The notes below the pieces were generated by a model. The model made no database searches and was not told where the DNA came from. It worked only from the letters and a program-made list of their open reading frames with translations. Source: Frigoribacterium endophyticum (GTDB lineage: Bacteria; Actinomycetota; Actinomycetes; Actinomycetales; Microbacteriaceae). Taken from it: DNA of 64,000 nt. Location of the stretch: contig NZ_JAAOYV010000002.1 in NCBI RefSeq assembly GCF_011759585.1, positions 183,510-247,509 on the forward strand. The letters run 5' to 3'. Of this stretch, positions 33,300 through 58,645 are shown piece after piece; the stretch's first letter is position 1, and every line of letters begins with the position of its first letter. Made by a program: the position numbers and the translations under genes.

Positions 33300-33370
33300 G
33301 GGGATGTAGCTCAATGGTAGAGCCTCAGTCTTCCAAACTGATGGCGCGGGTTCGATTCCCGTCATCCCCT
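33300..33370 (+). tRNA. tRNA-Gly (anticodon TCC)
   Basis: GGGGATG (33300-33306) pairs with CATCCCC (33363-33369). The anticodon arm CAGTC/ACTG carries TCC, and GGTTCGATTCC forms the T arm. CCA is not encoded. A hairpin repeat array starts 11 bp after the 3' end. Confidence 0.96.
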
Positions 33371-33380
33371 CGTATGGGTT

Positions 33381-33571
33381 CGACGCCTCCGGCGTCCGTC
33401 GCTTCGCGACGTGAATGAATCTTCCTCCGGGCTTCGTTCTGCCTCGTCCGTCGCGGTGCTCATTCGACGCCTCCGGCGTCCGTCGCTTCGCGACGTGGAT
33501 GCATCTTCCTCCGGGCGTCGTTCTGCCTCGTCCGTCGAAGTGCTCGTGCGACGCCTCCGGCGTCCGTCGCC
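33381..33571 (+). repeat. 84-bp tandem repeat array downstream of tRNA-Gly
   Basis: Units start at 33381, 33465 and 33549 (the last truncated after about 23 bp); the two full copies differ at about eight positions. Each unit opens with two adjacent hairpins, GACGCC-TCC-GGCGTC and GTCGC-TTC-GCGAC, and ends CTGCCTCGTCCGTCG. It fills the space between tRNA-Gly and the convergent acyltransferase gene, so it would be in the tRNA's trailing transcript. The rest of the gap to 33610 holds nothing else I can identify. Confidence 0.88.
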
Positions 33572-33610
33572 TACGGGGGCGGTCGCGGAGGCGCGACCCG
33601 GGGGCGCGGG

Positions 33611-35410
33611 TCAGCGGTCGAGGGGGGCGAAGTAGGCGTCGAGGGGGGAGGCGCGGAGGGCGTCGCCGAAGAGGGTCGCGCCGGCGCGGGTGAAGTGGAC
33701 GCGGTCGGGTGACAGCAGGGCGCCCGAGTCGTCCGTGATCGGCGTGCGCCCGTCCCGCCACAGGGGGCTCCACGACACGTAGTGCTCGGCCGGCACGAGG
33801 GCCGACGAGCTCGCCTCGCGCTCGGCCACCCACCCCGGCAGCCGGTTCGTCAGGCCCGCACGGTCGTCGCCGCGGCGCTGCACCACCCAGTTGAGGTTGT
33901 CGCCGAAGTTCTTCGGCCCGCCGTAGAAGACCGCCTTGCCCTCCGCCGTCATGCTCGCGATCTCGCCTCGCAGGCAGGGCTCGTACTCGTCGCCGATCGA
34001 CACCAGCACCACGTCGGCGCCCGCCCAGAGCGCCGACCCCTCGAGCTCGGGGTTCGCGGCGAGGAAGCAGACCCCCGCGTCGAAGGACGGGCCGTGCAGG
34101 TGCCGCAGCTCGAGGTCGGCCCGCGGGTACGTCTCGAGCACGCTGTTCGCCAGGTCGCGCGACCAGCTGTCGCCCACCACGAGCACGTTCGTCGCGCCGG
34201 GCCGGTCGAAGGGCTCGCGGCCCGTCTCGCTGATCCGCCGGTTGTAGTCGATCGAGGCCTCGGCCGGGTCCTCGCCGAGCCGTGCGGGCAGGCCGCCCGA
34301 CCCGGCGAGCACGGCTCCGGCGACGACGACCACCGCGGCTCCCCCGCCCACCACCGGCACGAACCGGCGGAGCGACATCCGCGCGGGGCGGCGGAAGGGC
34401 TCCTCCACGAACCGCCACGACAGCCAGCCCACGCCCAGCGCGACGGCCATGAGCACGACGAAGAGCCAGGCCGGCGGGGCCTCCGGCGTCAGCACGCGGG
34501 CGAACACGAAGAGGGGCTGGTGCCACAGGTAGACGCTGAAGGTGACGACCCCCACCGCGACGAGCGGCCGGGCCGAGAGGAGGCGCGTCACCGGCGACCC
34601 GGAGCGCGCGAACGCGATGACGAGCGCCACGCCCGCCACGGCCGCCGCCACGACCGGCAGGCGGAACCCCTCCTCGGCCGGGGCCCCGACCAGCGAGGCC
34701 ACGACGAGACCCAGGCCGAGCAGCGCGAGCCAGCGCGCCCGGCCGTCGGGCACGGCGACGAGCCAGCGCCACCCCCGACGAGCACCCACCGCGAGCAGGC
34801 AGCCGACGAGGATCTCCCACGCCCGCGCGGGCAGGAGGTAGTAGGCCGAGTCGACGTCGACGAGCCCCTGGTGCAGGGCCAGGACGAGGCTGGCGAGCGT
34901 CGCCGCGACCAGCGCGATCGTCCGCACCCGGGCGGGCACCCGCGGAGCGACGACGAGCACGAGGGGGAAGAGCAGGTAGAACTGCTCCTCGACGCCGAGG
35001 CTCCAGGTGTGCAGGAAGGGCTTGAAGTCGGAGGCGAGGTCCCAGTAGCCGGAGGTCAGCCAGAGCAGCACGTTGTTGCCCGAGGCCAGCGTCGCCACGA
35101 GCGACTGCCCGTAGTTCTCGAGCTCGTCGGGCAGCATCACGAGCACGGCCACGGGCAGGGTCGCCAGCATGACGACGACGAGGGCGGGGAGGATGCGGCG
35201 GGCCCGGCGGACGAGGTAGCGACCGACCCCGAAGCGCCCGAGGTCGCGGTCGCGCAGCGCGATGCTCGTGGCGAGGTAGCCGCTGATGACGAAGAAGAAG
35301 TCGATGCCCGAGCCGCTCAGCCCCCGGAACCCCGCGTGCGACCACATCGTCGTGAGGATCGCGACGGCCCGCAGCCCGTCGAGCTCGGCACGGTAGCGGA
35401 AGGGGACCAC
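33611..35410 (-). CDS. Acyltransferase 3 / SGNH fusion (OafA/YrhL-type O-acyltransferase)
   Basis: The 599-residue protein begins with the acyltransferase-3 signature YRAELDGLRAVAIL and the FFFVISGYLA segment. About ten membrane helices follow to residue 360. A soluble C-terminal SGNH-like domain (VLVVGDSWSRDLA, then DRVHFTRAG) completes it. This architecture transfers acetyl groups from the cytoplasm to surface glycans. The start is a GTG at 35410. It is divergent from an SGNH-hydrolase lipoprotein gene, which suggests they act on the same surface polymer. Confidence 0.92.
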   Translation of the reverse strand: MVPFRYRAELDGLRAVAILTTMWSHAGFRGLSGSGIDFFFVISGYLATSIALRDRDLGRFGVGRYLVRRARRILPALVVVMLATLPVAVLVMLPDELENYGQSLVATLASGNNVLLWLTSGYWDLASDFKPFLHTWSLGVEEQFYLLFPLVLVVAPRVPARVRTIALVAATLASLVLALHQGLVDVDSAYYLLPARAWEILVGCLLAVGARRGWRWLVAVPDGRARWLALLGLGLVVASLVGAPAEEGFRLPVVAAAVAGVALVIAFARSGSPVTRLLSARPLVAVGVVTFSVYLWHQPLFVFARVLTPEAPPAWLFVVLMAVALGVGWLSWRFVEEPFRRPARMSLRRFVPVVGGGAAVVVVAGAVLAGSGGLPARLGEDPAEASIDYNRRISETGREPFDRPGATNVLVVGDSWSRDLANSVLETYPRADLELRHLHGPSFDAGVCFLAANPELEGSALWAGADVVLVSIGDEYEPCLRGEIASMTAEGKAVFYGGPKNFGDNLNWVVQRRGDDRAGLTNRLPGWVAEREASSSALVPAEHYVSWSPLWRDGRTPITDDSGALLSPDRVHFTRAGATLFGDALRASPLDAYFAPLDR

Positions 35411-35556
35411 GGTGGTGCTCCGATCGTCGTCGAGGCCCCGTCCGGACCCATAGACCCACCATCGTAATATGTCTCATGACGCCGACCGTGCCAGTGAGCG
35501 CAGATGTCATCCCGACGGTGTACGTGGAGGCCCCCGCGATGCGGCACGATCGACCC

Positions 35557-36345
35557 ATGGACCGCGCGACCCCCGCCCGCGTCGCGCTCGTGGGCGCGGC
35601 GCTGGCCCTGCTGACGACCGGCTGCTCCGCGGGGGCCGTGACCACCGCCTCCCCCGCTCGGGTCTCCGCGGCCGCGCCGGGCGCGGCCAGCACGCTCGTG
35701 CCCGTCGCGGCGGGCGACGGCCACGGCGTCCGGGTCGCGATCGTGGGCGACTCGCTCACGGCCGGCGGCGGTCGCCTGCTCAGCGACGGGCTCGCCGCCG
35801 ACACGTGGATGACGTACGCGCAGGGCGACGGCGTCGAGTACGTCGGCGGCTGGGCGCGGGGCGGCAGCACGGTCGAGCAGCAGGCCGCCGCCGTGCAGCC
35901 CGTCGCCGACGTCGACGTCCTCGTGCTGATGTCGGGCACGAACGACGTGCGCACGGGAGTCTCGTTCTCGACGGCCCGGGCGTCGTACGAGTCGATCATC
36001 GACACCGTCGGCGCGCGCGAGGTCGTCGTGGCCGCCATCCCCCCGTACGACCGCGACCCCTCGGCCGCCGCCCGCTACGAGCGCGACCTCGAGCGCTGGG
36101 TCGCGACGACCGACCACGTCTTCGTCGACCCGTGGCGCACCGTGCGCTCGGGCGAGGCCTGGGTGCCCGGGGCCAGCGTCGACGGCATCCACCCGACCAC
36201 GGCCGGCTACGAGCGGCTCGGCCGGTCGCTCCGCGAGACCATCCTCGACGTCGGCGCCGCCCCCGAGGTGCTCCGGGCCGACGAGGGGCCCGTCGAGGGC
36301 ACGCCCGACGGGGTCGCGCCGGGGAGCGTCGACGGCGGCAGCTGA
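35557..36345 (+). CDS. SGNH/GDSL-family hydrolase lipoprotein
   Basis: This 262-residue lipoprotein has a signal ending in the lipobox LLTTGC. The SGNH blocks follow: block I GDSLTAG (Ser), block II glycine (GGWARGGST), block III SGTNDVR (Asn) and block V DGIHPT (Asp-His). Such enzymes are esterases or deacylases of surface glycans and lipids. I chose the ATG at 35557; an upstream in-frame ATG at 35476 has no signal peptide context. It is divergent from the acyltransferase, so opposing add/remove roles are conceivable. Confidence 0.88.
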   Translation: MDRATPARVALVGAALALLTTGCSAGAVTTASPARVSAAAPGAASTLVPVAAGDGHGVRVAIVGDSLTAGGGRLLSDGLAADTWMTYAQGDGVEYVGGWARGGSTVEQQAAAVQPVADVDVLVLMSGTNDVRTGVSFSTARASYESIIDTVGAREVVVAAIPPYDRDPSAAARYERDLERWVATTDHVFVDPWRTVRSGEAWVPGASVDGIHPTTAGYERLGRSLRETILDVGAAPEVLRADEGPVEGTPDGVAPGSVDGGS

Positions 36346-36385
36346 CCCCCGGGGAGGCGCGGTGCGGGTCGCGCCCCGCCCGCCC

Positions 36386-37051
36386 CTAGTGCTGCAGGTA
36401 GGCCAGCACCGCCAGCACGCGGCGGTGGTCCGTGCCGCTGTCCTCCAGCAGGAGCTTCTGGAAGATCGACGTGACGTTCTTCTCGACGGCGCCCGTGCCG
36501 ATCACGAGCTGTGCGGCGATCGCCGCGTTCGTGCGGCCCTCGGCCATGAGGGTCAGCACCTCGCGCTCGCGCGGCGTGAGGGCGGAGAGCGGGTCGCTGC
36601 GGCGCCCGAGCAGCTGCGAGACGACCTGCGGGTCGAGCACGGTGCCGCCGGCCGCGACGCGCTCGAGGGCGTCGCGGAACTCGTCGATCGACGCGATGCG
36701 GTCCTTCAGCAGGTAGCCGACGCCGCCAGAGCCCGACTCGAGGAGGTCGCGGGCGTAGGCGACCTCGACGTACTGCGAGAGCAGCAGGATGCAGGTCTGC
36801 GGGCGCCGGCGACGGATCTCGATCGCCGCCCGCACCCCCTCGTCGGTGTGGGTCGGCGGCATGCGGACGTCGAGCACGGCGACGTCCGGGGCGACGGCGT
36901 CGAGGTCGGCGAGCAGCGAGTCCGCGTCGCCGAAGGCCCCCACGACCGCCACCCCCAGCTCGTCGAGCAGCCGCACCAGACCCTCGCGCAGCAGCACGGA
37001 GTCGTCGGCGACCGCGACGCGGAGGGCGGGATCGAGGGGGCCGTCGGTCAT
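36386..37051 (-). CDS. NarL/LuxR-family response regulator
   Basis: The 221-residue regulator has a receiver domain (residues 11-130) with the acidic pair DDS, the phospho-acceptor VLDVRMPP and the conserved lysine in YLLKDR. A LuxR helix-turn-helix follows (LTPREREVLTLMAEG, then GAVEKNVTSIFQKL). It lies nine bases after the sensor kinase stop and is co-transcribed with it. The regulon is unknown. Confidence 0.95.
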   Translation of the reverse strand: MTDGPLDPALRVAVADDSVLLREGLVRLLDELGVAVVGAFGDADSLLADLDAVAPDVAVLDVRMPPTHTDEGVRAAIEIRRRRPQTCILLLSQYVEVAYARDLLESGSGGVGYLLKDRIASIDEFRDALERVAAGGTVLDPQVVSQLLGRRSDPLSALTPREREVLTLMAEGRTNAAIAAQLVIGTGAVEKNVTSIFQKLLLEDSGTDHRRVLAVLAYLQH

Positions 37052-37060
37052 CCCGGCAGT

Positions 37061-38653
37061 CTAGGGAGCCGTCGGCCCGCCCGTCGCGCCGCGGCCCCGC
37101 CCCCGGCCGGCCCCGCGGGGCAGCGGCTCGGTCACGGCCGTCGGCGACACGTCGGGCAGCGGCTCGGTCACGGCGGCGTACGGGGGCAGCGGCAGGGTGG
37201 GGGACGTGCCGGGGGTCGCCGCGGTCGGCGTCGGCTCCGCCGTCGTCGGGGCGTCCGCCGAGGGAGGCGCGACCGGGCTCCCGAGGTCGGTCACGAGCGG
37301 GATGCTCACCGTCACGATCGTCGGGCCGCCCTGCGGGCTGGAGATGTCGAGGAACCCGCCGAGCCCCACGAGGCGCTCCTGCACCCCGGCGAGGCCGTGC
37401 CCGTCACGGAGGCCCGCGCCGCCGCGGCCGTCGTCGGTGACGACGAGCTCGAGCAGGGTGCCGACGCCGTCGGGGGCGGTGCGGGTGCGGAGCGCGAGGT
37501 CGGCCGAGCTGGCCTCCGAGTGCTTGCCGATGTTCGTCACGAGCTCCGACGCGATGAAGTAGGCGTTGCGCTCGATGTCGGCGGGCACCACCACGTGGGC
37601 GGGCACCCGGTTCACCAGCGTCGTCGAGATGACGGCGCGGTCGACGAGCGACTCGAGCGCGGCGACGAGGCCTCGGTCGAGCAGCAGCGGTGGGGCGAAC
37701 CCGCGGGAGAGGGCGCGCAGCTCCTCGAGGGCCTCGCGGGACTGCACCCGCGCCTCCTCGATCAGGGCCTTGCTCTTCTCCGGGTCGACGTCGACGGCGC
37801 GGGCGGCGGCGGCGAGGTCCATCTGGAGGCGCACGAGCCGCTGCTGCGGCCCGTCGTGGATGTCGCGCTCGAGGCGACGGAGCGCCGTGCCCTCGGCGGA
37901 GAGCGCCGCGGTGCGCGAGATCTCGCGGTCGGCCAGCTCGACCTCGAGCTGCTCGGAGCGGAACCCGCCGAGCACGGCGGCGGCGATCGCCTGGTGCACC
38001 ACGACCGCGGCGTGCACGACGTACGGGTAGACGAGCACGACGCCGGCGAAGACGGCGAGGGCCACGATCACCAGGGCGGCGGCCCCGCCGGCGCCGATCG
38101 CCGACGGCCAGTCGCCGAGCGGGAACGGGGTGACGGCGCCGAAGAACAGCACGATGCCGAGCACGAGCAGGAGGGGGCCGCCGAGCAGCAGGGCGAGCAC
38201 GAACGTCGTCACGCCCGCGACGGTCGGGAACACGATGAGGGCGTAGAGGAGGTAGAGCCAGTAGTGCGGGTTCGCGAAGACCGACACGGCGCGGACGAAG
38301 CGCGAGCTCGACCGGCCCCAGGCCGTGTTCGGGGTCCAGTCCACGGGGCGGATCGGGCGGTCGCTCGCCCAGCGCAGCCGGAGCACCTCGAAGGTGCCGA
38401 ACCAGCGGGCCAGCCAGAGGGCGCCGAAGACGACCACGGCGAGGAAGAGGAGGGTGACGAGCGAGTCGCTCGAGCCGCTCAGCACGTGGAAGAACAGCGC
38501 GGCGCCCAGCGACACGATCACGACCAGCACCGCCGAGAGGGCCACGTAGCCGAGCTCGCGGGGCAGCTCGCGCCAGCGGCGACGGTAGCCGCCCGGGCGG
38601 GCGGGCGGCGACAGGTAGGGGTTCTGGACGGTGATGGGGCGCTCCTGGGTCAT
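37061..38653 (-). CDS. Two-component sensor histidine kinase (HisKA_3 type)
   Basis: The 530-residue kinase has two N-terminal helices (about residues 35-85) and a further membrane block (about 130-245). A HisKA_3 dimerisation domain carries the phospho-histidine in LERDIHDGPQQRLV, and an HATPase domain shows NAYFIASELVTN and DDGRGG...GHGLAGVQERL. The C-terminal 90 residues are Pro/Thr-rich with two copies of AVTEPLP and a glycine/arginine tail, probably disordered. The signal is unknown. It pairs with the downstream response regulator, like LiaS/DesK-type systems. Confidence 0.93.
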   Translation of the reverse strand: MTQERPITVQNPYLSPPARPGGYRRRWRELPRELGYVALSAVLVVIVSLGAALFFHVLSGSSDSLVTLLFLAVVVFGALWLARWFGTFEVLRLRWASDRPIRPVDWTPNTAWGRSSSRFVRAVSVFANPHYWLYLLYALIVFPTVAGVTTFVLALLLGGPLLLVLGIVLFFGAVTPFPLGDWPSAIGAGGAAALVIVALAVFAGVVLVYPYVVHAAVVVHQAIAAAVLGGFRSEQLEVELADREISRTAALSAEGTALRRLERDIHDGPQQRLVRLQMDLAAAARAVDVDPEKSKALIEEARVQSREALEELRALSRGFAPPLLLDRGLVAALESLVDRAVISTTLVNRVPAHVVVPADIERNAYFIASELVTNIGKHSEASSADLALRTRTAPDGVGTLLELVVTDDGRGGAGLRDGHGLAGVQERLVGLGGFLDISSPQGGPTIVTVSIPLVTDLGSPVAPPSADAPTTAEPTPTAATPGTSPTLPLPPYAAVTEPLPDVSPTAVTEPLPRGAGRGRGRGATGGPTAP

Positions 38654-38813
38654 GGGACGAGCCTCGCGGGTCCGGGCCTCGCTCCCCATGGTGCCAGCGC
38701 CCGGACGCCCGGTGGGGTTATCCCCCGCTGCGACCCGGACGAGCGGCTCAGACGGGACGCAGGTCGGCGCCGGTGAGGGCAGGCGACCCTCACGAAGTGC
38801 AGCCTCAGCTTGC

Positions 38814-38841
38814 TTGCGGAATCCCCCCAGCCGAATAGCGT
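38814..38841 (+). promoter_or_regulatory. Candidate dps promoter
   Basis: TTGCGG (38814-38819) and TAGCGT (38836-38841) are 16 bp apart, 29 bp before the dps ATG. No clear DtxR or Fur box overlaps it. Confidence 0.45.
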
Positions 38842-38870
38842 TGCACCCATCGTCTAGGAAAGGACTCGTC

Positions 38871-39359
38871 ATGACCGATCTCCGCATCACCGTTCCCCAG
38901 GGCTCCGTCGACCCGGACGTCGCCGCCGGCGTCGCCCAGTTCCTCAGCCCGATCGTCACCGACCTGACCGCCCTCTCCGTCAACGGCAAGCAGGCGCACT
39001 GGCACGTCCGGGGCATCGCCTTCGTCGCCGTGCACGAGCTCATCGACGTCGTCGTCGACCACGCCCGCGAGTGGGCCGACCTGGCCGCCGAGCGCGTCGT
39101 CGCCCTCGGCCTCCCCGTCGACGCGCGCATCGAGACCGTCGCCGCCAAGACCTCGATCCCCACGACGTCGCCCGGCTTCAACCAGATCGACCGCACGATC
39201 GCCGAGCTGGTCGCCCAGATCGACGCCGCCCTGGTCGGCGTCCGCACCGCCATCGACGAGCTCGGCGAGCTCGACGCCTCCAGCCAGGACGTCGCGATCG
39301 AGATCTCGCGCGGCCTCGAGAAGGACCGCTGGTTCCTCGCGGCGCACGTCGCCGGCTGA
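38871..39359 (+). CDS. dps: Dps-family DNA-binding ferritin-like protein
   Basis: Dps forms 12-mers that oxidise and store iron and shield DNA under stress. The 162-residue protein has the ferroxidase residues spread over KQAHWHVRG and DVVVDHAREWADLAAERV, the normal Dps pattern. The ATG at 38871 is preceded by AGGAAAGGA. It is a single gene ended by a strong bidirectional hairpin. Confidence 0.95.
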   Translation: MTDLRITVPQGSVDPDVAAGVAQFLSPIVTDLTALSVNGKQAHWHVRGIAFVAVHELIDVVVDHAREWADLAAERVVALGLPVDARIETVAAKTSIPTTSPGFNQIDRTIAELVAQIDAALVGVRTAIDELGELDASSQDVAIEISRGLEKDRWFLAAHVAG

Positions 39360-39394
39360 GCCGACGTCGGCTGACCCCGGCACCTGCCTGACGA

Positions 39395-39426
39395 GAGGCC
39401 GCCGCCCCCACCGGGGCGGCGGCCTC
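39395..39426. terminator. Bidirectional terminator dps/amidohydrolase
   Basis: GAGGCCGCCGCCCC (39395-39408) and GGGGCGGCGGCCTC (39413-39426) form a perfect 14-bp stem with a CACC loop between two convergent genes. Confidence 0.8.
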
Positions 39427-39431
39427 CGTCG

Positions 39432-40931
39432 TCAGGGCGTGCGGTGCGTGAACCGGCCGCCGACGAGGGTCGCGGCGACCGGGAACCCCCGGAGGTCGTC
39501 GGCCGCGAGCGGGTCGGCCTCCGTGACGACGAGGTCGGCGACACGGCCCGCACGGACGAGCCCCTGCCCGTCGACCGAGGCGAGCAGCGCCGCCCGCGCC
39601 CCGATCCGCTGCTCGGGGTGCCAGGCGGCACGGCCGTCGCGCGACCGCGAGACGGCGGCCGCCATCGTGACCCACGGGTCGAGCGGAGCCACCGGGGCGT
39701 CCGACCCGAGGCGCAGCTCGACCCCGGCCGCGACGAGCGACGCCAGCGCGAAGGCACGGTCGGTGCGGCCAGCCCAGAGGGCGTCGGCGACGTCGCGGTC
39801 GTCCATCGCGTGCTCGGGCTGCACGCTGGCGACGACGCCGAGGCCGGCGAACCGCGCGACGTCGGACGCGTCCAGCAGCTGCGCGTGCTCGACGCTGCCG
39901 CGGCAGCCCACGGCCTCGAACGCGTCGAGGGCCCGCTCGTTCGCCCGGTCGCCGATCGCGTGCACGGCCGGCACGAGGCCCGCCGAGGAGGCGCGGCGCA
40001 TCCACGCGACGAGGTCGCCCTGGTCGTAGCTCGCGACCCCGCTCGCGCCCGGACCGCTCAGCCCCGGGTACGGGTCGTGGCACCACGCGGTGCGCGTGTT
40101 GAGCGACCCGTCGGTGATGATCTTCGCCGGCCCCACCGTGACGAGCCCCCGGGTGCCCGGCACCACGTCGCCCGTGCGGAGCCCCCGCTCGACGGCCGCC
40201 TCGAGGTCGTGGGGGTAGACGCCGCAGCGCACCCGCAGCTGGTCGACGCCGCCCCGGACGCGACGGGCCCAGCGGTCGAGCGAGAACGACATCTCGAGGT
40301 CGACGACGCCGACGACGCCCCGCGCGGCCGCGGCGGCGACGGCGTCGCCCACCCAGCCGTCGAGGACGGCGTCGCTGACCGCGCTGACGGCGGTTGACAC
40401 GGCGAACGCGTCCTGCTCGCGCAGCAGGCCCGTCTCGTGGCCGGCGTGCCCGTGGGCGGCCAGCGCGGCGCTGTCGAGCCAGGCCGCATGCAGGTCGGCG
40501 CTGACCAGCACGACCGGCACGTCGCCGCTGACGGCGTCGAGGAGCGCCCGGTGCGGCTGGTCGGGCCAGAGCGCGTCACGGAAGCCGTAGCCGACCAGGG
40601 GCTCCCCGGGCGCGGGCGGCGCCTCGCGGAGGCGCGCCCCGACGAGGGCCGCGGCCTCCGCGGCGCTGGTCGCCCCGCCGACGTCGAGGCGGCGGCGCAC
40701 GAGCGACCACTGGTCGAGGTGCGCGTGGGAGTCCCAGAGGCCGGGGCCGAGCCACCGGCCCTCGAGGTCGACGACCTCGGCGCCGCCGGGCGGCGCGAGC
40801 TCGCCCCGGGGCGCGAGCTCGACGACGACCCCGCCGTCGAGGAGGGCGTCGACGGGAGCGGAGCCGTCGGCGCCGACGACGCGGGCGTTCGTCAAGAAGA
40901 CGGCCCGCGCCTCCTCGGGCTCGGGGCTCAT
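39432..40931 (-). CDS. Amidohydrolase family protein (YtcJ-like)
   Basis: The 499-residue metal-dependent hydrolase shows the first metal motif DSHAHLDQW, a central KIITDGSLNTRTAW segment, the histidine in AVHAIGDRAN, and the late LRLGSDAPVAPLDPW. This matches the YtcJ-like amidohydrolase_3 branch, whose substrates are mostly unknown. A C-terminal GRVADLVVTEADPL beta-sandwich strand is typical. Its ATG overlaps the paiB stop by four bases, so the two are coupled. Confidence 0.9.
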   Translation of the reverse strand: MSPEPEEARAVFLTNARVVGADGSAPVDALLDGGVVVELAPRGELAPPGGAEVVDLEGRWLGPGLWDSHAHLDQWSLVRRRLDVGGATSAAEAAALVGARLREAPPAPGEPLVGYGFRDALWPDQPHRALLDAVSGDVPVVLVSADLHAAWLDSAALAAHGHAGHETGLLREQDAFAVSTAVSAVSDAVLDGWVGDAVAAAAARGVVGVVDLEMSFSLDRWARRVRGGVDQLRVRCGVYPHDLEAAVERGLRTGDVVPGTRGLVTVGPAKIITDGSLNTRTAWCHDPYPGLSGPGASGVASYDQGDLVAWMRRASSAGLVPAVHAIGDRANERALDAFEAVGCRGSVEHAQLLDASDVARFAGLGVVASVQPEHAMDDRDVADALWAGRTDRAFALASLVAAGVELRLGSDAPVAPLDPWVTMAAAVSRSRDGRAAWHPEQRIGARAALLASVDGQGLVRAGRVADLVVTEADPLAADDLRGFPVAATLVGGRFTHRTP

Positions 40932-41545: not shown

Positions 41546-41558
41546 GCGACCGAGCCTG

Positions 41559-42533: not shown

Positions 42534-42542
42534 GCGTCGCCC

Positions 42543-43028: not shown

Positions 43029-43049
43029 GACCTCGATCCTAGGACGGCG

Positions 43050-46414: not shown

Positions 46415-46467
46415 GCGTCCAGGCCGCACTCGGCCGACGTCGGACGGGCGTGCTTAGATCGTCGGCG

Positions 46468-48771: not shown

Positions 48772-48792
48772 CGGCCCCCTAAACTACATCGG
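48772..48792. promoter_or_regulatory. Overlapping divergent promoters for the 48100 gene and tesB
   Basis: Only 21 bp separate two divergent ATG starts. On the plus strand TAAACT (48780-48785) lies seven bases before the tesB ATG. On the minus strand TAGTTT (48786-48781) lies nine bases before the other ATG. If these are -10 boxes, tesB would be leaderless and the other nearly so. AGGGGG precedes the minus-strand ATG, whereas tesB has no ribosome site. Confidence 0.55.
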
Positions 48793-49683: not shown

Positions 49684-49742
49684 CCTCCGGGTCGGGAAGG
49701 CGTCAGGGCTCAGCGCCCCCGGGGATCTGTGCCCGCCAGGGA

Positions 49743-50216: not shown

Positions 50217-50217
50217 C

Positions 50218-51903
<1,686 letters not shown>

Positions 51904-52003
51904 GGTGTCCAGTCTACGGGTCGCGCCGTGGGGCGCCGGGGGCGGGATGGGAGGAGTTCGAGGGTCGGCCCCGTCGGGGGCCGGAGGGCGGAGGCGCGGG
52001 TCG

Positions 52004-52468: not shown

Positions 52469-52578
52469 GGAGCACCTTTCTGGCCGGTGACCCGGGCCGG
52501 GTCGGACTCGACCGATCGTAGCGGTCGCCGGTGGCGCGGGCCCCCGGCGGCACGGTTCGGCGTCGCCCGCGGCCCGCG

Positions 52579-53169
52579 CTAGAACGGAGGCTCGCCGCCG
52601 CCCTCAGCCGGGTCCGACGTGCTCGCACCCGCTCCGACCCCGGCCGGGACGAGGGGCTCGCCCTCGCCGTCGGCGTCCCCGCCGGCCGACGACTCGTCGG
52701 GGCGCGGGGCGGCGGCGGACGCCCAGCCGGGGGCCGCGGTGCCCCCGGCGACCGCCTCGGGGTCGGCAGGGGCCGGCGCGTCGCCCGCCGCGCCTCCCGC
52801 GGGCGTCGCGGAGGCGAGGGCCCTGCTCCAGGAGGACCGGCCCCAGCGCAGGTCGTGGCCGACCGCGTCGGCGTCGACCTCGACGGTCGTGCCCGACCTG
52901 TCGCTCGTCTCCCAGGGGCGGATGCGGAGGCGGCCCGTGACGACGAGCCGCTCGCCTTTGTGCACGGAGGCGCCCACGTTGGCGGCGAGCGCCCGGAAGG
53001 CCGTGACGGTGTACCAGTTCGTGTCGCCGTCGACCCAGGCGTCACGCGCCCGGTCGAAGCGGCGCTGCGTGCACGCGAGGCGGAAGCTCGTGATGTCGAG
53101 CCCGGCCTCGGTCGTGACGAGGCGGGGGTCGGTGGCGACGATGCCGGTGAGGGTGATGGTGTCTGTCAT
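52579..53169 (-). CDS. ssb: Single-stranded DNA-binding protein
   Basis: SSB coats single-stranded DNA. The 196-residue protein has an OB fold (residues 1-105: ITLTGIVATDPRL, FRLACTQRRFD, WYTVTAFRALAANV, KGERLVVTGRLRI), then a disordered Gly/Ala/Pro tail. The acidic tip EGGGEPPF recalls the conserved C-terminal interaction peptide. The OB fold is more divergent than the main replicative SSB, so it is probably the second SSB-like paralogue (as Rv2478c from memory). Confidence 0.88.
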   Translation of the reverse strand: MTDTITLTGIVATDPRLVTTEAGLDITSFRLACTQRRFDRARDAWVDGDTNWYTVTAFRALAANVGASVHKGERLVVTGRLRIRPWETSDRSGTTVEVDADAVGHDLRWGRSSWSRALASATPAGGAAGDAPAPADPEAVAGGTAAPGWASAAAPRPDESSAGGDADGEGEPLVPAGVGAGASTSDPAEGGGEPPF

Positions 53170-53201
53170 GCCGGGAGTCTCGCGAGGGCGGGCGGCCCCT
53201 C

Positions 53202-53243
53202 GGCCGGGCCCGCGCCTCCCTGGGGACGACGCGGGCCCGGGCC
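53202..53243 (-). terminator. Hairpin between the 53283 gene and ssb
   Basis: CCGGGCCCGCG and CGCGGGCCCGG pair around a 15-base loop in the 113-bp gap. It could end the short upstream gene on the minus strand. Confidence 0.5.
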
Positions 53244-53282
53244 GCCCCGGGGAGGGACGGCCGGCGAGGGCTCCCCCGACGG

Positions 53283-53513
53283 CTAGTGCTCGCGGAACTC
53301 CGGGTACTCGGCCCCGGGCCCGAGCGCGGCGAACAGCGCGCTCTTCGCGACGGCGAGCGTGGGGTACTCCCCGCTGAACTCGTCGCGGCCGGCGAGGCGC
53401 ACGGTGAAGCCGTGGCTCGTGCGGTGGACGGAGCCGACGGCTCCGGCGGGCCCGAGGGCCAGCCAGGACTGCCCGGTCAGCTCGACCCGGTCGGTGGTCA
53501 TGTGGTCGCTCAT
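53283..53513 (-). CDS. Small protein of unknown function
   Basis: The 76-residue protein (MSDHMTTDRVELTG) has two beta segments (SWLALG, HGFTVRLAGRDEFSGEYPTL) and a short helix (VAKSALFAAL), ending in EYPEFREH. No family recognised. GAAGGGTG lies nine bases before the ATG, which supports the start. It follows msrA on the same strand with a 49-bp gap. Confidence 0.65.
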   Translation of the reverse strand: MSDHMTTDRVELTGQSWLALGPAGAVGSVHRTSHGFTVRLAGRDEFSGEYPTLAVAKSALFAALGPGAEYPEFREH

Positions 53514-53562
53514 CGTCGAGCACCCTTCTCTCGGTGGCGCCCCGCACGGCGTGCAGGGCGGG

Positions 53563-54090
53563 TCAGGTGGCCAGGGCGTACCGGGCGTAGGCGCGGCGGA
53601 CGGCGATGACCTTCGGCCGCGCCACCGCCACGCAGTACCCCTGGCCGGGGTTCTTCTCCGCGAAGTCCTGGTGCTCCTCCTCGGCGGGCCAGAAGCGGCC
53701 GAGCGGCTCGACGGTCGTGACGACCCCGCCGCCCCAGGTCGCGTCGGCCCGCTCGCGGGCGCGCTCGAACAGCTCGCGCTGGGCCTCGTCGGCCGCGAAC
53801 GTCGCCGACCGGTACTGCGACCCGACGTCGGCGCCCTGGCGGTCGAGCTGACGAGGGTCGTGCACCGTGTAGAACACGTCGAGCACGACGTCGGCCGGCA
53901 GCACGGCGGGGTCGAAGGCGACGCGCACGGACTCCGCGTGCCCCGTCGAGCCCGTGACGACCTCGTCGTACGTGGGGTCGGGCGACGAGCCGCCCGTGTA
54001 GCCGGAGACGACCTCCGTGACCCCGTCCAGCGCGCGGTACACCGCGTCGAGGCACCAGAAGCAGCCACCGGCCAGGACGAACGTCGTCAT
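53563..54090 (-). CDS. msrA: Peptide-methionine (S)-S-oxide reductase
   Basis: MsrA repairs oxidised methionine. The 175-residue protein has the catalytic motif GGCFWCLDA near the N-terminus, then VVSGYTGG, the segment GSTGHAESVRV, and the late resolving cysteine in NPGQGYCVAV. Family length is normal. It is divergent from the aldo/keto reductase gene. Confidence 0.97.
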   Translation of the reverse strand: MTTFVLAGGCFWCLDAVYRALDGVTEVVSGYTGGSSPDPTYDEVVTGSTGHAESVRVAFDPAVLPADVVLDVFYTVHDPRQLDRQGADVGSQYRSATFAADEAQRELFERARERADATWGGGVVTTVEPLGRFWPAEEEHQDFAEKNPGQGYCVAVARPKVIAVRRAYARYALAT

Positions 54091-54186
54091 GGGGCGCACG
54101 GTACTCCGCCGACCCGCGATCGACCAGGGGGCGCCGTCCCCCGATCGCTCGGGCCCGCGGGCGGGGCCCGGCCCTAGGGTGAGGTC

Positions 54187-55206
54187 ATGAGATCTCCCTT
54201 CACCCCCTACGTCGCCGACGACGAGCGGTACTCGAAGCTGGACTACGTCCGCACCGGTCGCAGCGGGCTCAAGCTGCCCCGCATCTCGCTCGGGCTCTGG
54301 AACAACTTCGGCACCGACCGTGCCCTCGAGACGCAGCGCGACATCGTCCTCCGCGCGTTCGACCGCGGCGTCACCCACTTCGACCTGGCCAACAACTACG
54401 GCCCGCCCTACGGCTCGGCCGAGGAGCAGTTCGGGCGCATCGTGGCCGCGAACCTCGGGCCCTACCGCGACGAGCTCGTCGTCTCGTCGAAGGCGGGCTA
54501 CGACATGCGCCCCGGCCCCTACGGCGACGGCGGATCGCGCAAGTACCTGCTGAACTCGCTCGAGGCCAGCCTGGAGCGCACGGGCCTCGACTACGTCGAC
54601 GTCTTCTACTCGCACCGCCCCGACCCCGAGACGCCGATCGAGGAGACGATGGGGGCCCTCGCGACCGCCGTGCACCAGGGCAAGGCGCTCTACGCCGGCA
54701 TCTCGAACTACGGCCCGGAGCAGACGCAGGCGGCGATCGACGCCCTGGCCGACGAGGGCGTGCCCCTGCTGATCCACCAGCCGCGCTACAACATGTTCGA
54801 CCGGAAGCCCGAGCAGGGGCTCTTCGAGACCCTGCTCGACAACGGCGTGGGCTCGATCGTGTTCTCGCCGCTCGCCGGCGGCCTCCTCACGAACCGCTAC
54901 CTCTCGGGCAAGGCGCCGGCCGGGTCGCGGGCGGCCGAGGGCCGCTGGTTCACCGAGGACGCCCTGAGCGAGACCTACCTCGAGCGCGTCCGGGGCCTGA
55001 ACGACATCGCGGAGGCGCGGGGCCAGTCGCTCGCCCAGCTCGCGCTGACCTGGGTGCTCCGTCAGCCCGCCGTCACGAGCGCCCTGATCGGTGCGTCGTC
55101 GGTCGCCCAGCTCGACGACAGCCTCGACGCGCTGCACGGGGCCGAGCTGACCGACGACGAGATCGCGGCCATCGAGCCGTTCGCCGTCGACGGCACGGGT
55201 CGCTGA
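54187..55206 (+). CDS. mgrA: Aldo/keto reductase (YghZ/MgrA-like L-glyceraldehyde-3-phosphate reductase)
   Basis: The 339-residue (beta/alpha)8 NADPH reductase has the catalytic tyrosine in THFDLANNYGPPYGSAE and the lysine in VVSSKAGYDMRPGPYGDGGS. The histidine lies in FYSHRPDPE and the NADPH-binding end in IGASSVAQLDDSL. The RPGPYGDGGSRKYL segment is typical of the YghZ branch, which reduces L-glyceraldehyde-3-phosphate and other aldehydes. It ends before a strong hairpin. Confidence 0.93.
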   Translation: MRSPFTPYVADDERYSKLDYVRTGRSGLKLPRISLGLWNNFGTDRALETQRDIVLRAFDRGVTHFDLANNYGPPYGSAEEQFGRIVAANLGPYRDELVVSSKAGYDMRPGPYGDGGSRKYLLNSLEASLERTGLDYVDVFYSHRPDPETPIEETMGALATAVHQGKALYAGISNYGPEQTQAAIDALADEGVPLLIHQPRYNMFDRKPEQGLFETLLDNGVGSIVFSPLAGGLLTNRYLSGKAPAGSRAAEGRWFTEDALSETYLERVRGLNDIAEARGQSLAQLALTWVLRQPAVTSALIGASSVAQLDDSLDALHGAELTDDEIAAIEPFAVDGTGR

Positions 55207-55241
55207 CGGAGCGGACGCGGGCCTGACGGGCTCGTCGTCGG

Positions 55242-55275
55242 AGGAGGGGCGGGCCCGGTCGGGTCCGCCCCTCCT
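55242..55275 (+). terminator. Terminator after the aldo/keto reductase
   Basis: AGGAGGGGCGGGCCC (55242-55256) pairs with GGGTCCGCCCCTCCT (55261-55275), a 15-bp stem with one G-U pair and a GGTC loop, 36 bp after the stop. Confidence 0.75.
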
Positions 55276-55391
55276 GCCGTCTCCGGCGCCGTCGTCGGGC
55301 TCCCGCCTCCGGGTCGAGGCGATGTCGGTGGCAGCTCGTAGCGTCAGCCGTGTTCTCGACAGCATCGGCCGGATGACCTCAGGAGCACCTC

Positions 55392-55682
55392 ATGACCAGC
55401 ACCTCCGCGACCACCCTCCTCACGCCCCCGGCGACGCGTCCGGCGACGCAGCACCTCCCGCTCGCCGAGACCCGCGGGGGCCTGCGCCTCGTCCAGGTGC
55501 GCGACGACCTCTCCCGCGTCACGACGGCCTCGGGCGAGGTGCTCGGCTACGTCGAGAGGCACGACGACCCGCAGGGCGACCGGTGGCGGGCGAAGAGGTT
55601 CCTGGCCCGTCAGCGGCGCTTCGTCGAGATCGGCGACTTCTGGAGCCGCAGCGACGCGACCGACTGCTTCCGGTTCGCCTGA
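55392..55682 (+). CDS. Small protein of unknown function
   Basis: The 96-residue soluble protein is preceded by AGGAG seven bases before the ATG. After a Thr/Pro/Ala-rich head of about 30 residues it has a beta-rich core (GGLRLVQVRDDLSRVTTASG, VLGYVERHD, RWRAKRFLARQRRFVEIGDF) that ends DCFRFA. I do not recognise the family. Confidence 0.65.
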   Translation: MTSTSATTLLTPPATRPATQHLPLAETRGGLRLVQVRDDLSRVTTASGEVLGYVERHDDPQGDRWRAKRFLARQRRFVEIGDFWSRSDATDCFRFA

Positions 55683-55742
55683 GCCGCGGCTCGCCCGCGA
55701 CCGGGCCCCGGCAACCTTCGACCTCGGCTGTAGAGTTCGCGC

Positions 55743-56609
55743 ATGCAGTGGTGGAACAGTCTCGTCCGGTGGGTCCAGAGCGACGACGGGTGGCGCGTCG
55801 TCTCCGAGGCGGTGGTGCCGTTCGTGGCGATCCTCGTCGCCGGCGCCGTCGCCGCCCTGATCGGGAGGGCCGCCCTGAAGCGCGTCGTCCGCCTGCACGA
55901 CGACGAGGCCAAGGCCTCGGCGATCGCGGGCATCGTCGCGGCGTCGCGCAAGGCAGCGACGTGGAGCTCGCTCGGGGCTGAGGAGCGCACCTTCACCGAC
56001 CACCTCGCCCAGGAGGCGGAGGTGCGTCTGCGCCTCCTGCCCGTGACCGGCTCAGGCCTGGCCGCCTCGTGGGCCGAGCACCAGCTCGGCGAGATCAAGC
56101 GTGACTCCGCCAGCTACAGCCACCAGCCCGAGCAGTCGCTGGCGGAGTTCCGCGACCGCCTGCTCGACTGGCAGAGCCGCCCGTCGCGGGCCAAGAAGCT
56201 CTTCAGGGCGGACCTGGAGCGGTGGCGCTACGAGGACGCCGAGCAGGCGACCGAGGCCGAGCAGCGTCAGCGCGACTGGAAGGCCGAGCGCGACGCGCAG
56301 AAGGCGGCACCGGCCTCGGGCTCAGGCGCCTCTGCCCCCGCCCGCCGCGCGGACGAGCCCGTCGAGGTCACGCCGTTCGTGCCGGAGCGACGGACGCCGA
56401 CGGCGCCCACGCCGCTGACCGACGAGCACGCTGCCTTCCGACCCACGTCGCCGGCCCGTCACGAGCCCGTCCGGCCCCGGGAGTCGGCCCCCACGGAGGC
56501 GATGCCCGCTCAGCGCGACTCGTCCGACGAGGGAGACGACGACACCGACCGCTACGGCGACCCGGTCAGCGCCGCGCAGGTCCGCGACCGGACGACGCCC
56601 GACGCGTAG
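55743..56609 (+). CDS. Membrane-anchored protein of unknown function
   Basis: The 288-residue protein has one N-terminal membrane helix (about residues 22-45) followed by a long helical cytoplasmic region. That region contains AEHQLGEIKRDSASYSHQPE and charged coiled-coil-like stretches to about residue 185. A disordered Pro/Ala/Glu/Arg tail follows. No family recognised. It is convergent with tRNA-Arg and stops two bases before the tRNA-derived repeat array. Confidence 0.7.
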   Translation: MQWWNSLVRWVQSDDGWRVVSEAVVPFVAILVAGAVAALIGRAALKRVVRLHDDEAKASAIAGIVAASRKAATWSSLGAEERTFTDHLAQEAEVRLRLLPVTGSGLAASWAEHQLGEIKRDSASYSHQPEQSLAEFRDRLLDWQSRPSRAKKLFRADLERWRYEDAEQATEAEQRQRDWKAERDAQKAAPASGSGASAPARRADEPVEVTPFVPERRTPTAPTPLTDEHAAFRPTSPARHEPVRPRESAPTEAMPAQRDSSDEGDDDTDRYGDPVSAAQVRDRTTPDA

Positions 56610-56611
56610 CG

Positions 56612-56822
56612 GGTGCCCTCGGCAGGGCGACGACCAACGGTGCCCTCGGCAGGGATCGAACCTGCGACCGGGAGATGAGAAGCACCACGAAGAGCCTGTC
56701 GCGGTGCCCTCGGCAGGGCAACTCGTCACGGTGCCCTCGGCAGGGATCGAACCTGCGACCAAGAGATGAGAAGCACCACGAAGAGCCTGTCGCGGTGCCC
56801 TCGGCAGGGCAACTCGTCACGG
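56612..56822 (-). repeat. 91-bp tandem array of tRNA-Arg 3'-half copies
   Basis: On the minus strand, directly after tRNA-Arg, two 91-bp units follow (boundaries at plus positions 56821, 56730 and 56639). Each unit contains one copy of about 42-45 nt of the tRNA 3' half, from the anticodon loop (TTCTCATCTC versus TTCTAATCTC in the gene) to the terminal ACC, and one copy of only the last 16 nt. GGTGCCCTCGGCAGGG thus occurs at 56612, 56639, 56703, 56730, 56794 and 56821 with alternating 27 and 64 bp spacing. The spacers (GTGACGAGTTG and a 20-nt segment) are also conserved. Confidence 0.92.
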
Positions 56823-56895
56823 TGCCCTCGGCAGGGATCGAACCTGCGACCAAGAGATTAGAAGGCTCCTGCTCTATCCGCTGAGCTACGAGGGC
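56823..56895 (-). tRNA. tRNA-Arg (anticodon TCT)
   Basis: GCCCTCG (56895-56889) pairs with CGAGGGC (56830-56824). The D arm AGCTCAGCGGATAGAGC, an anticodon arm with TCT, and the T arm GCAGG-TTCGATC-CCTGC are complete. CCA is not fully encoded. Its 3' half is repeated downstream. Confidence 0.96.
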
Positions 56896-56920
56896 GTGGG
56901 CCCCACGATACCGTGCCCGC

Positions 56921-57181
56921 TCAGACGGCCAGGGCGAGCGCGCCGAGCAGCTGGTCGAGCCGCGGCACCCCCGCGGCACGGAACACCTCGGTGCCGGCCC
57001 GGTCGAGCACCACGATCGTCGGGGTGCTGCGGACGTCGCGGGCCTCCGCCTCGTCGGGCCGTGCGACGACGTCGGCCTCGTCCACCTCGAGCAGCGGCAC
57101 CAGGGCCGACGCCTCGGCCACGACGGCGCGGGCCGCGTGGCAGGGGCCGCAGAACGCGGACGTGTACAGCTCGACCTTCAT
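56921..57181 (-). CDS. Small thioredoxin-family protein
   Basis: The 86-residue thioredoxin-like protein has the active site SAFCGPCHAARAV near residue 10 and the cis-proline loop VRSTPTIVVLD. It lacks the extra N-terminal helix of full thioredoxin, so it resembles glutaredoxin/NrdH-sized redoxins. I chose the ATG at 57181 (MKVELYTS); an in-frame TTG at 57193 is less likely. It lies 65 bp after a small unknown gene and ends just before tRNA-Arg. Confidence 0.85.
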   Translation of the reverse strand: MKVELYTSAFCGPCHAARAVVAEASALVPLLEVDEADVVARPDEAEARDVRSTPTIVVLDRAGTEVFRAAGVPRLDQLLGALALAV

Positions 57182-57194
57182 GCCCCCGTACAAC

Positions 57195-57229
57195 GAGGAG
57201 GCGCGGGGAGATGTTCCCCGCGCCTCCTC
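57195..57229 (-). terminator. Hairpin after the 57247 gene
   Basis: GAGGAGGCGCGGGG (57195-57208) pairs with CCCCGCGCCTCCTC (57216-57229), a perfect 14-bp stem with a 7-base loop between the 57247 gene and the thioredoxin gene. Confidence 0.75.
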
Positions 57230-57246
57230 GTCCGACCGCCGTGGCG

Positions 57247-57543
57247 TCAGAAGGTGCCGAACTCGTCGGTGCGGTCGCCACGGTTCTCGAGGGAGTCGAC
57301 CGGGTCGCTGTCGGCCTCGTCGAGCTTGTAGTGCACCTGCAGCTGCTCGCCGTTCATCTTCGCCTCGCGCACCTTGTACACGAAGCCGGTCTCGATGCCC
57401 TCGACGAGCACGTAGTCGACGATCTCGTCCTCGTAGGAGCCGTCGAAGCTGGTGCGGGTGTCGGTGCTGCCGTCGCTCGGGCCGCCCTCGAAGAAGACGA
57501 CGTACTCGGATCCCTCGGCCACGGTGGGCTTGCTGTCTGTCAT
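57247..57543 (-). CDS. Small acidic protein of unknown function
   Basis: The 98-residue acidic protein has beta-strand-like segments (SEYVVFFEGGPSDGS, IVDYVLVEG, TGFVYKVREAK, LQVHYKLDEA) and an acidic tail (DRTDEFGTF). No signal peptide, no family recognised. It is divergent from orn with a 104-bp gap. Codon use is like its neighbours. Confidence 0.65.
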   Translation of the reverse strand: MTDSKPTVAEGSEYVVFFEGGPSDGSTDTRTSFDGSYEDEIVDYVLVEGIETGFVYKVREAKMNGEQLQVHYKLDEADSDPVDSLENRGDRTDEFGTF

Positions 57544-57647
57544 GCCACCCTTCTACCAGGAGGCGCGGACCGAGCGCCCAGGTAGGTCGCGCCTCCGGGG
57601 CGGCGCCCGAGCCCGAGCGTGTCGGCCCCCGACGCTAGAGTGGCGGC

Positions 57648-58268
57648 ATGGCTTCCACGAACGACCGGCTGGTCTGGATCGACTGCGAGATGACCGGGCT
57701 CGACATCGCGGTCGACGAGCTGGTCGAGGTGGCCGTCGTCGTCACCGACTTCGACCTCACGCCCGTGCACCCCGGCTTCACGATCGTGATCAAGCCCGAC
57801 CAGTCGGCGCTCGACAACATGAACGAGTTCGTCACCGACATGCACACCTCGTCGGGCCTGCTCGAGGAGATCCCGGGCGGCGTCAGCCTGGCCGAGGCCG
57901 AGTACGAGGTGCTCGAGTACATCCTCAAGTACGTGCCCACCGAGCAGCACGCGCCGCTGGCCGGCAACACGATCGGCACCGACCGCGCCTTCCTCGCCAA
58001 GTACATGCCGCGGGTCGACGGTCACCTGCACTACCGCAGCGTCGACGTCTCCTCCATCAAGGAGCTCGCCCGCCGCTGGTTCCCCCGCGTCTACTTCAAC
58101 GCCCCGCAGAAGCACGGTGGCCACCGGGCCCTCGCCGACATCCTCGAGTCCATCCGCGAACTCGAGTACTACCGCCGTGCCGGCTTCGTCGCCGACCCCG
58201 GGCCCACGACGGAGGACGTCCAAGCGATCTCCAAGGCCGTCGTGGACGAATGGGCCTCCCGGCTGTAG
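57648..58268 (+). CDS. orn: Oligoribonuclease
   Basis: Orn is the DEDDh exonuclease that removes di- and short oligoribonucleotides, including pGpG. The 206-residue protein shows Exo I WIDCEMTGLD, Exo II NTIGTDRAFL and Exo III with the histidine in KHGGHRALADI. Family length is normal. tRNA-His follows 40 bp later and may be co-expressed, though a TAGAGT box overlaps the orn stop. Confidence 0.97.
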   Translation: MASTNDRLVWIDCEMTGLDIAVDELVEVAVVVTDFDLTPVHPGFTIVIKPDQSALDNMNEFVTDMHTSSGLLEEIPGGVSLAEAEYEVLEYILKYVPTEQHAPLAGNTIGTDRAFLAKYMPRVDGHLHYRSVDVSSIKELARRWFPRVYFNAPQKHGGHRALADILESIRELEYYRRAGFVADPGPTTEDVQAISKAVVDEWASRL

Positions 58269-58274
58269 TAGAGT
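58269..58274 (+). promoter_or_regulatory. Candidate -10 box of tRNA-His
   Basis: TAGAGT fits TANNNT and lies 34 bp before the tRNA. The best -35 (TGGACG, 58243-58248) is 20 bp away, which is too far to be certain. Confidence 0.4.
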
Positions 58275-58307
58275 CTTCTCGTTGCGATCGCTCCGGCGGC
58301 CGCACAT

Positions 58308-58381
58308 GGTGGGTATAGCTCAGCTGGTAGAGCGCCTGGTTGTGGTCTAGGAGGCCGCGGGTTCAAGCCCCGTTACTCACC
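58308..58381 (+). tRNA. tRNA-His (anticodon GTG)
   Basis: The acceptor GTGGGTA (58309-58315) pairs with TACTCAC (58374-58380). The extra G at 58308 faces C58381, the tRNA-His identity pair. The anticodon arm CCTGG-TTGTGGT-CTAGG carries GTG. CCA is not encoded. The terminator array starts 9 bp after it. Confidence 0.96.
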
Positions 58382-58389
58382 CAAGTAGG

Positions 58390-58421
58390 AAGGCCCTGCC
58401 CTACGAGGCAGGGCCTTTTTT
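58390..58421 (+). terminator. Intrinsic terminator of tRNA-His (first of three)
   Basis: AAGGCCCTGCC (58390-58400) pairs with GGCAGGGCCTT, and the strand continues as T-run (to 58421). A T-run of this length is rare in this genome. Copies follow at 58478 and 58566. Confidence 0.9.
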
Positions 58422-58645
58422 GGGTTCCGTGCTTGTTTGGTCCCAGATGCGCGTGCGCATCTGGGACGCCAAATGGGAAGGCCCTGCCCTGCGAGGCAGG
58501 GCCTTTTTTGGGTTCCGTGCTTGTTTGGTCTCAGATGCGCGAGCGCATCTGAGACGCCAAATGGAAAGGTCCTGCCCTACGAGGCAGGGCCTTTTTTGGG
58601 TTCCGTGCTTGTTTCGTCTCATATGCGCGAGCGCATCTGAGACGT
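58390..58645 (+). repeat. 88-bp tandem array of terminators plus second hairpin after tRNA-His
   Basis: Three units start at 58390, 58478 and 58566. Each has an intrinsic terminator, AAGGCCCTGCC-loop-GGCAGGGCC with a run of six T, then TGGGTTCCGTGCTTGTTT. A second long palindrome closes each unit: GTCCCAGATGCGC/GCGCATCTGGGAC in unit 1, GTCTCAGATGCGC/GCGCATCTGAGAC in unit 2. Units 1 and 2 show a compensating change in that stem. Unit 3 has mismatches there. Confidence 0.92.

What the first reader, a model, noticed from the sequence alone, without database searches (positions are those of the whole stretch)
33300..58645. Three of four tRNA genes are trailed by tandem arrays of 84-91 bp
tRNA-Gly (84-bp units), tRNA-Arg (91-bp units) and tRNA-His (88-bp units) each carry two to three tandem units that begin 0 to 11 bp after the tRNA 3' end, on the transcribed side. 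The unit sequences are unrelated, but the period and placement are alike. In E. coli the tyrT operon has 178-bp repeats containing the tRNA 3' end that yield rtT RNA, so a comparable but undescribed actinobacterial class of tRNA trailer array is possible. Only tRNA-Pro lacks one.
Basis: partly seen in the sequence, partly recalled or inferred. Interest (0 to 1): 0.75.

Follow-up and report, generated by a model that had tools for sequence, protein, structure and literature searches.

The report
Tandem repeats trailing tRNA genes
In this actinobacterium eight of 45 tRNA genes are followed by short tandem repeats; most look like ordinary local duplications, but the one behind tRNA-Arg(UCU) is made of copies of that tRNA's own second half and reappears, with the same one-letter change, in many related bacteria.

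Summary
Arrays follow tRNA-Gly, -Arg and -His; the Arg array starts inside the tRNA. Genome-wide, 8 of 45 tRNA genes have a tandem array (period >=40) within 350 nt on the 3' side, 0 of 45 on the 5' side. Intergenic regions: 8/44 at tRNA 3' sides versus 11/844 elsewhere (p 1e-6); convergent junctions 6/19 versus 7/159 (p 7e-4). As a general class it fails: 1 of 45 tRNAs in a sister species, only the Arg array in another genus, no His array in 80 relatives. His and Gly arrays look like lineage-specific duplications of the local trailer.

tRNA-Arg(UCU) differs. Its units carry nt ~27-76 of the tRNA. Such copies (1-7) occur in 33 genomes of 10 Microbacteriaceae genera and in two other families. 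They match the local tRNA from nt 38 on, but 66 of 66 readable copies have C37 where the tRNA has A37. Six displaced tRNA halves at island-like junctions and eight tRNA-less viral copies keep A37. Best reading: a displaced attachment-type half-site, expanded and homogenised by recombination with the tRNA gene. Function, expression and the cause of C37 are unproven.

The parts
33300..33371 (+). tRNA-Gly(TCC)
   Evidence: ARAGORN, Rfam 76.1 bits
33379..33570 (+). Gly trailer array, 84-bp unit x2.3, starts 8 nt after the tRNA end; palindromic segments, no T-tailed terminator found
   Evidence: TRF; scan (0 terminators); genus orthologues
56821..56895 (-). tRNA-Arg(TCT)
56612..56864 (-). Arg array, 91-bp unit x2.8, begins inside the tRNA (last ~44 nt) and repeats the tRNA 3' half; each unit also holds a second short copy of the tRNA 3' end
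   Evidence: TRF; sequence; copies
56727..56788 (-). first extra copy of the tRNA-Arg 3' half with its 5' flank; C at position 37
   Evidence: R1 hit 80.6 bits
56636..56697 (-). second extra copy, C37, TT>CC change in the variable region
   Evidence: R1 hit 74.7 bits
58309..58382 (+). tRNA-His(GTG), downstream of an oligoribonuclease-like gene (57648-58268)
   Evidence: (gene name recalled, no family search made)
58381..58644 (+). His trailer array, 88-bp unit x3.0; each unit = intrinsic terminator hairpin + second palindrome
   Evidence: TRF; sequence; terminator-like sites at 58398, 58486, 58574
33075..33148 (-). tRNA-Pro(TGG), no array; 64 bp from the next same-strand gene

Best explanation
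Two layers. (1) His, Gly and the other non-Arg trailer arrays are recent tandem duplications of the local tRNA trailer, with its terminator where there is one, that arose and were tolerated in the 3' space of tRNA units, mostly between convergent genes; they are lineage-specific. (2) The Arg array grew from a displaced tRNA-Arg(UCU) 3' half of the integrase-attachment kind (nt ~27-76, C37). It expands and contracts by homologous recombination or slippage through the ~40 nt of identity it shares with the tRNA gene. That exchange keeps copies matched to the local tRNA from nt 38 on and leaves nt 37 and the 5' flank untouched. Shown: position, copy numbers, the C37 rule, tracking of the local tRNA, whole-unit differences among sister species, a dimer-based array in one genome. 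Inferred: attachment-site origin, the recombination mechanism, co-transcription with the tRNA.
For: Excess at tRNA 3' sides. One terminator per His unit. Different units and periods at orthologous Gly and His trailers. Arg: 33 genomes of 10 genera with extra copies; 66 of 66 readable array copies C37 against A37 in 33 of 33 readable tRNA genes of the same loci; the T-stem variant of G137 is in the tRNA and its copies, one base apart in the last. Difference by whole units at the exact tRNA end: G110 vs G601, G167 vs G641. G613 shows alternating units, i.e. dimer amplification. C37 again in family f8 (G322 three copies 78 bp apart, G363, G239) and in f45 of another order (G1078, two copies 74 bp apart). 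The fragment spans anticodon region to tRNA end, a usual integrase identity block (PMC4383910 passages). In f35 a C37 half lies away from any called tRNA at 5 places in 4 genomes, one beside a Phage_integrase frame.
Against: No intact element with a C37 end was seen in Microbacteriaceae. Displaced halves at this tRNA keep A37: six read (G454, G335, G205, G281, G295, G652), one pair by position only (G126), one in f35 beside the C37 ones (G1127). The attP of Rhodococcus phage Mbo4 at tRNA-Arg has another left side. The flank, CGCGGTGC in most Microbacteriaceae copies, is better kept than a plain relic should be.
Confidence: 0.48

Rival explanations
1. Functional trailer RNA, rtT-like: the copies are co-transcribed with pre-tRNA-Arg, fold as a T-arm minihelix and are released during processing to act as decoys or regulators.
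For: In G677, G707 and G732 the copies lie between the tRNA and a terminator-like hairpin, while G755 without copies has the hairpin behind the tRNA (read by eye). Flank kept over genera. 5' strand often complementary to the acceptor end; both f45 copies pair better than shuffles (p 0.038 and 0.05).
Against: Pairing test weak elsewhere: 24 distinct Microbacteriaceae pairs, median -11.65 kcal/mol vs -9.9 for shuffles, 2 with p<=0.05; the tRNA's own strand gives -10.7 and -11.7; 0 of 3 in f8. RNAalifold picks another hairpin, 1 of 11 pairs with a two-sided change. Patchy distribution; no expression data.
Confidence: 0.2
2. Independent neutral duplications only: tRNA 3' halves were copied by slippage several times and C37 is coincidence or a frozen ancestral mutation.
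For: Trailer duplications are common in this genome; recombination would homogenise only the part right of nt 37.
Against: The same A37C in three families of two orders and no A37 in the readable array copies; f8 adds T33G in the same loop.
Confidence: 0.2
3. Selected decoys: half-sites whose change at nt 37 lies in the expected crossover region (anticodon loop) bind or stall integrases and spare the tRNA gene.
For: tRNA-Arg(UCU) is used by islands and by a phage; C37 sits in the loop where anticodon-class crossovers fall (PMC4383910 passages).
Against: The left half-site is not kept as an inverted repeat in Microbacteriaceae; no test of protection; G652 has a displaced half in front of its array, so integration happened there.
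Confidence: 0.07
4. Assembly artefact.
For: Contigs end at or in such arrays in G175, G656 and G664.
Against: Arrays also in single-contig G758 and in many separate assemblies, with unit variants.
Confidence: 0.03

Closest known systems
rtT repeats of the E. coli tyrT operon (Rfam RtT)
   Same: Tandem repeats behind a tRNA gene whose units contain the tRNA 3' end (taken from the finding and recall); RNA released from the tRNA transcript (PMC4986893 passages)
   Different: No Rfam RtT match here; unit spacing 62-103 bp in the loci read instead of 178; the fragment is half a tRNA with C37; recurs across genera; RNA not shown
Displaced tDNA fragment of a genomic island (Islander definition)
   Same: 3' fragment from the anticodon region to the tRNA end, downstream, same strand
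   Different: No integrase or island in between, spacing about 100 bp or less (Islander discards <2 kb), often several copies, C37 instead of A37
Intergenic tandem repeats / duplicated terminators
   Same: The His array and some of the other arrays duplicate a terminator-bearing trailer
   Different: Concentrated behind tRNA genes in this one genome

Membership tests
rtT / tyrT repeat | tandem units contain the tRNA 3' end | tested here: met
   Arg only; not His or Gly
rtT / tyrT repeat | match to the Rfam RtT model | tested here: not met
   only 4 tRNAs and a TPP riboswitch reach gathering score in the window
rtT / tyrT repeat | stable RNA released from the tRNA transcript | not testable with these tools
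   no RNA data
rtT / tyrT repeat | encoded small basic protein (Tpr; recalled) | not tested
   -
Displaced fragment of a tRNA-targeted island | 3' tRNA fragment downstream in the same orientation | tested here: met
Displaced fragment of a tRNA-targeted island | integrase gene and island (>2 kb) between tRNA and fragment | tested here: not met
   window units are 91 bp with no room for a gene
Displaced fragment of a tRNA-targeted island | fragment keeps A37 of the tRNA, as the displaced halves read at this tRNA do outside f35 | tested here: not met
   array copies C37; six displaced halves read A37; in f35 five such halves are C37 and one A37, so the feature is not absolute
General actinobacterial tRNA trailer array class | several tRNA genes per genome carry arrays in relatives | tested here: not met
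   1 of 45 in G110, only the Arg array in G758; two genomes tested in full

The most novel reading that the evidence does not exclude
tRNA-Arg(UCU) in many actinobacteria carries a maintained array of its own 3' half with a fixed change in the integrase crossover loop: either a minimal mobile or attachment cassette that lives on recombination with the tRNA gene, or a decoy array that blocks integration into it.
Probability: 0.15. Interest if true: 0.85.

Novelty: new variant of a known kind. Interest (0 to 1): 0.55.

Why it matters
A tRNA gene that trails one to seven copies of its own second half, matched to it from nt 38 on but different at nt 37, gives a natural marker of where exchange with a tRNA gene stops. 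It is easy to test for copy-number change, for RNA products and for effects on integration. Island finders of the Islander type drop fragments closer than 2 kb, so such arrays would be overlooked by them.

Tried and rejected
Mobile-element attP with the same flank: GGTGCTTCTCATCTC occurs in 12 viral contig stretches, none followed by the tRNA half when read (two were flagged by a loose motif but do not match); the looser C37 pattern is in 0 viral contigs; plasmids no match; phages 5 records: 2 with an annotated tRNA-Arg, 1 unannotated and by eye a whole tRNA, 2 records of phage Mbo4 with an annotated attP of another left side.

Dispersed-repeat origin of the Gly unit: only its own place matches in the genome, 40 of 86 first-look candidates scored. 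Minihelix selection: weak. RNAalifold: almost no covariation. A first, smaller background (53 convergent protein junctions; 6/17 vs 3/16 at >=100 bp) looked as if context alone explained the excess; the larger sample changed that. The order-wide pattern search with 2 mismatches gave 6 hits besides this genome, none with a tRNA half; it was too narrow, since the covariance model and a looser pattern later found f8 and f45. A motif search for integrases in nine stretches found one only (L380) and missed the frame in L399 that Pfam names, so its misses mean little.

Literature: seven answered searches listed no paper on such arrays; only open-licence PMC papers are held.

Full report
Check of the observation. 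Two corrections: the Arg array begins inside the tRNA and its unit contains the tRNA 3' half, and the His unit contains a terminator-like hairpin, three in all. The scan found no terminator in the Gly or Arg stretch.

Is it more than chance? The window is part of a 3,324,001-base genome with 45 tRNA genes. The oligoribonuclease-like protein beside tRNA-His (name recalled) is 93-94% identical to that of three Frigoribacterium records, so the genome is Frigoribacterium or close to it (inference). I took stretches with all 45 tRNAs plus spread blocks, 1,469,811 bases. Arrays of period >=40 lie in 8 of 44 intergenic regions on the 3' side of a tRNA and in 11 of 844 others; tRNA-5' only regions 0 of 35; divergent protein regions 0 of 203. 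Arrays in general favour convergent junctions (7 of 159 protein-only), but convergent tRNA regions have more (6 of 19, p 7e-4; length >=100 bp 6 of 17 vs 7 of 70, p 0.017; length net of extra copies >=70 bp 4 of 16 vs 7 of 106, p 0.038). Besides Gly, Arg and His the tRNAs with arrays are at C1:547272, C1:677610, C1:1041680, C2:569849 and C2:1298699.

Is it a class? In the sister genome G110 1 of 45 tRNAs has an array within 350 nt 3'; in G758 of another genus 2 of 45, both being the one Arg array seen from two tRNAs; 5' sides 0 and 1 of 45. The same test on this genome gives 8 and 0 of 45. Across 80 Microbacteriaceae loci found through the oligoribonuclease-like protein, none has an array within 400 nt behind tRNA-His. 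Of the 56 with a called tRNA-Arg(TCT), 3 have extra 3'-half copies: Frigoribacterium sp. PhB160, Microterricola pindariensis, Compostimonas suwonensis; a fourth locus, Salinibacterium sedimenticola L080, has copies although no tRNA-Arg was called in it. In 16 genus genomes TRF (period >=35, within 400 nt) finds Gly arrays in 6 (84 bp here, 48-54 bp in the others) and His arrays in 2: this genome, and G167 with a different 54-bp array about 120 nt downstream; G755 has a spaced duplicate. So the generic arrays are lineage-specific duplications.

The Arg array. A pattern for the 5' edge of the copies hit 12 of 199 family genomes: 9 at tRNA-Arg(TCT) (one, G143, with a masked tRNA) and 3 elsewhere without a tRNA half. 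A pattern for the 3' half with one mismatch hit 175 of 398 family genomes; in the other 223 the tRNA differs too much to be judged. Reading the loci gives extra copies in 33 genomes of 10 genera (g1 7, g3 1, g5 1, g40 1, g50 7, g55 4, g60 1, g63 4, g74 5, g80 2), counting the truncated copy of G063 and the long-T-loop copies of G707 and G732; in G175 the tRNA is on another contig, and in G652 the 3' half in front of the array lacks the tRNA 5' part. The listing was cut, so this is a lower bound. Up to 7 extra copies lie behind one tRNA (G613). Of ten g1 genomes read, 7 have copies and 3 (G110, G167, G755) have none. In the 38 loci, 66 of 66 readable array copies have C37, 33 of 33 readable tRNA genes A37; one tRNA (G710) and one copy there are masked at nt 37, and one A37 half without a tRNA (G652) is an island-like junction. 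Two genomes with two A37 matches (G172, G698) proved to have whole tRNAs at both. The sequence right of nt 37 follows the local tRNA, for example the changed T-stem of G137. Forty-five distinct copy sequences entered; G707, G732, G063 and one degenerate G040 copy were left out there; 25 went into alignment A1. The flank is CGCGGTGC in most copies, while the spacer is not kept. Sister species differ by whole units (G110/G601, G167/G641), and G613 shows alternating units. In this genome no other tRNA has such repeats; tRNA-Phe has one 17/20 match, 18/20 in G110.

Outside the family. A covariance model of 25 copies over 297 order genomes (239 with a match) scored mostly the tRNA itself, but showed G322 with three copies 78 bp apart and G363 with one, both family f8; G239 of f8 has one degenerate copy. 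All five read C37, and G at 33 instead of T. I fetched 18 stretches of the many matches, so other arrays may remain unread. A looser C37 pattern over 394 class genomes hit 6: this genome, G1078 of family f45 in another order (two copies 74 bp apart behind tRNA-Arg(TCT)), and four genomes of f35. The f35 copies (5 places) have no tRNA called in 1.5 kb around or in the 20-40 kb where the tRNA 5' part would lie; two have a perfect and one a near-perfect inverted repeat around the loop. They look like element junctions, and one lies beside a Phage_integrase frame, 36.6 bits. G1127 also has one A37 copy 15.7 kb away.

Islands. At the same tRNA, displaced halves about 10-66 kb from the tRNA were read in G454, G335, G205 and G281, and one on a partial contig in G295; one stands in front of the array of G652. 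All six keep A37. G126 has two A37 matches 14.8 kb apart that were not read. Only G454 showed an integrase motif next to the tRNA.

Mechanism. Homologous exchange through the shared ~40 nt explains copy number, tracking of the tRNA and survival of nt 37 and the flank. It does not explain why C37 is the same in three families. An attachment-site ancestry with C37, as f35 suggests, is the most economical cause, but no intact C37 element was seen in Microbacteriaceae. A selected RNA structure is possible: both f45 copies pass the pairing test, but only 2 of 24 in Microbacteriaceae and 0 of 3 in f8 do. Whether the copies are transcribed is inferred from terminator-like hairpins behind them in three genomes (by eye).

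Papers. Read in passages only: PMC8250186, PMC7657543 (RtT structure), PMC4986893, PMC2965389 (RtT and BIMEs), PMC4383910 (islands and displaced tRNA fragments). All others were seen in listings only.

Noticed in passing
window 1-242: 114-bp tandem duplication, 99% identical, 3' of a minus-strand gene; not near a tRNA.
   Followed up: no
window 63047-63157: TPP riboswitch on the minus strand.
   Followed up: no
L398-L401, L404 (f35): Four f35 genomes carry dispersed tRNA-Arg 3' halves with C37, two with a perfect inverted repeat around the anticodon loop, possibly ends of an integrative element family.
   Followed up: partly
L262, L264 (G707, G732): Arg copies with a longer, mutually similar T-loop insert, not simple decay.
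   Followed up: no
trailers of several tRNAs of this genome: A recurring GTTC.GTGCTTGT-like motif follows tRNA terminators and is often followed by a second palindrome (by eye).
   Followed up: no
G000:C1:677819-677989 and the trailer of G110:C1:1461020: Probably the same tRNA gene (equal Rfam scores) has an array in both species with different periods (55 and 43 bp), so it may be older than the others.
   Followed up: no
L261 (G652): An island-like junction has displaced a tRNA-Arg 3' half with A37 and left the C37 array behind it.
   Followed up: no
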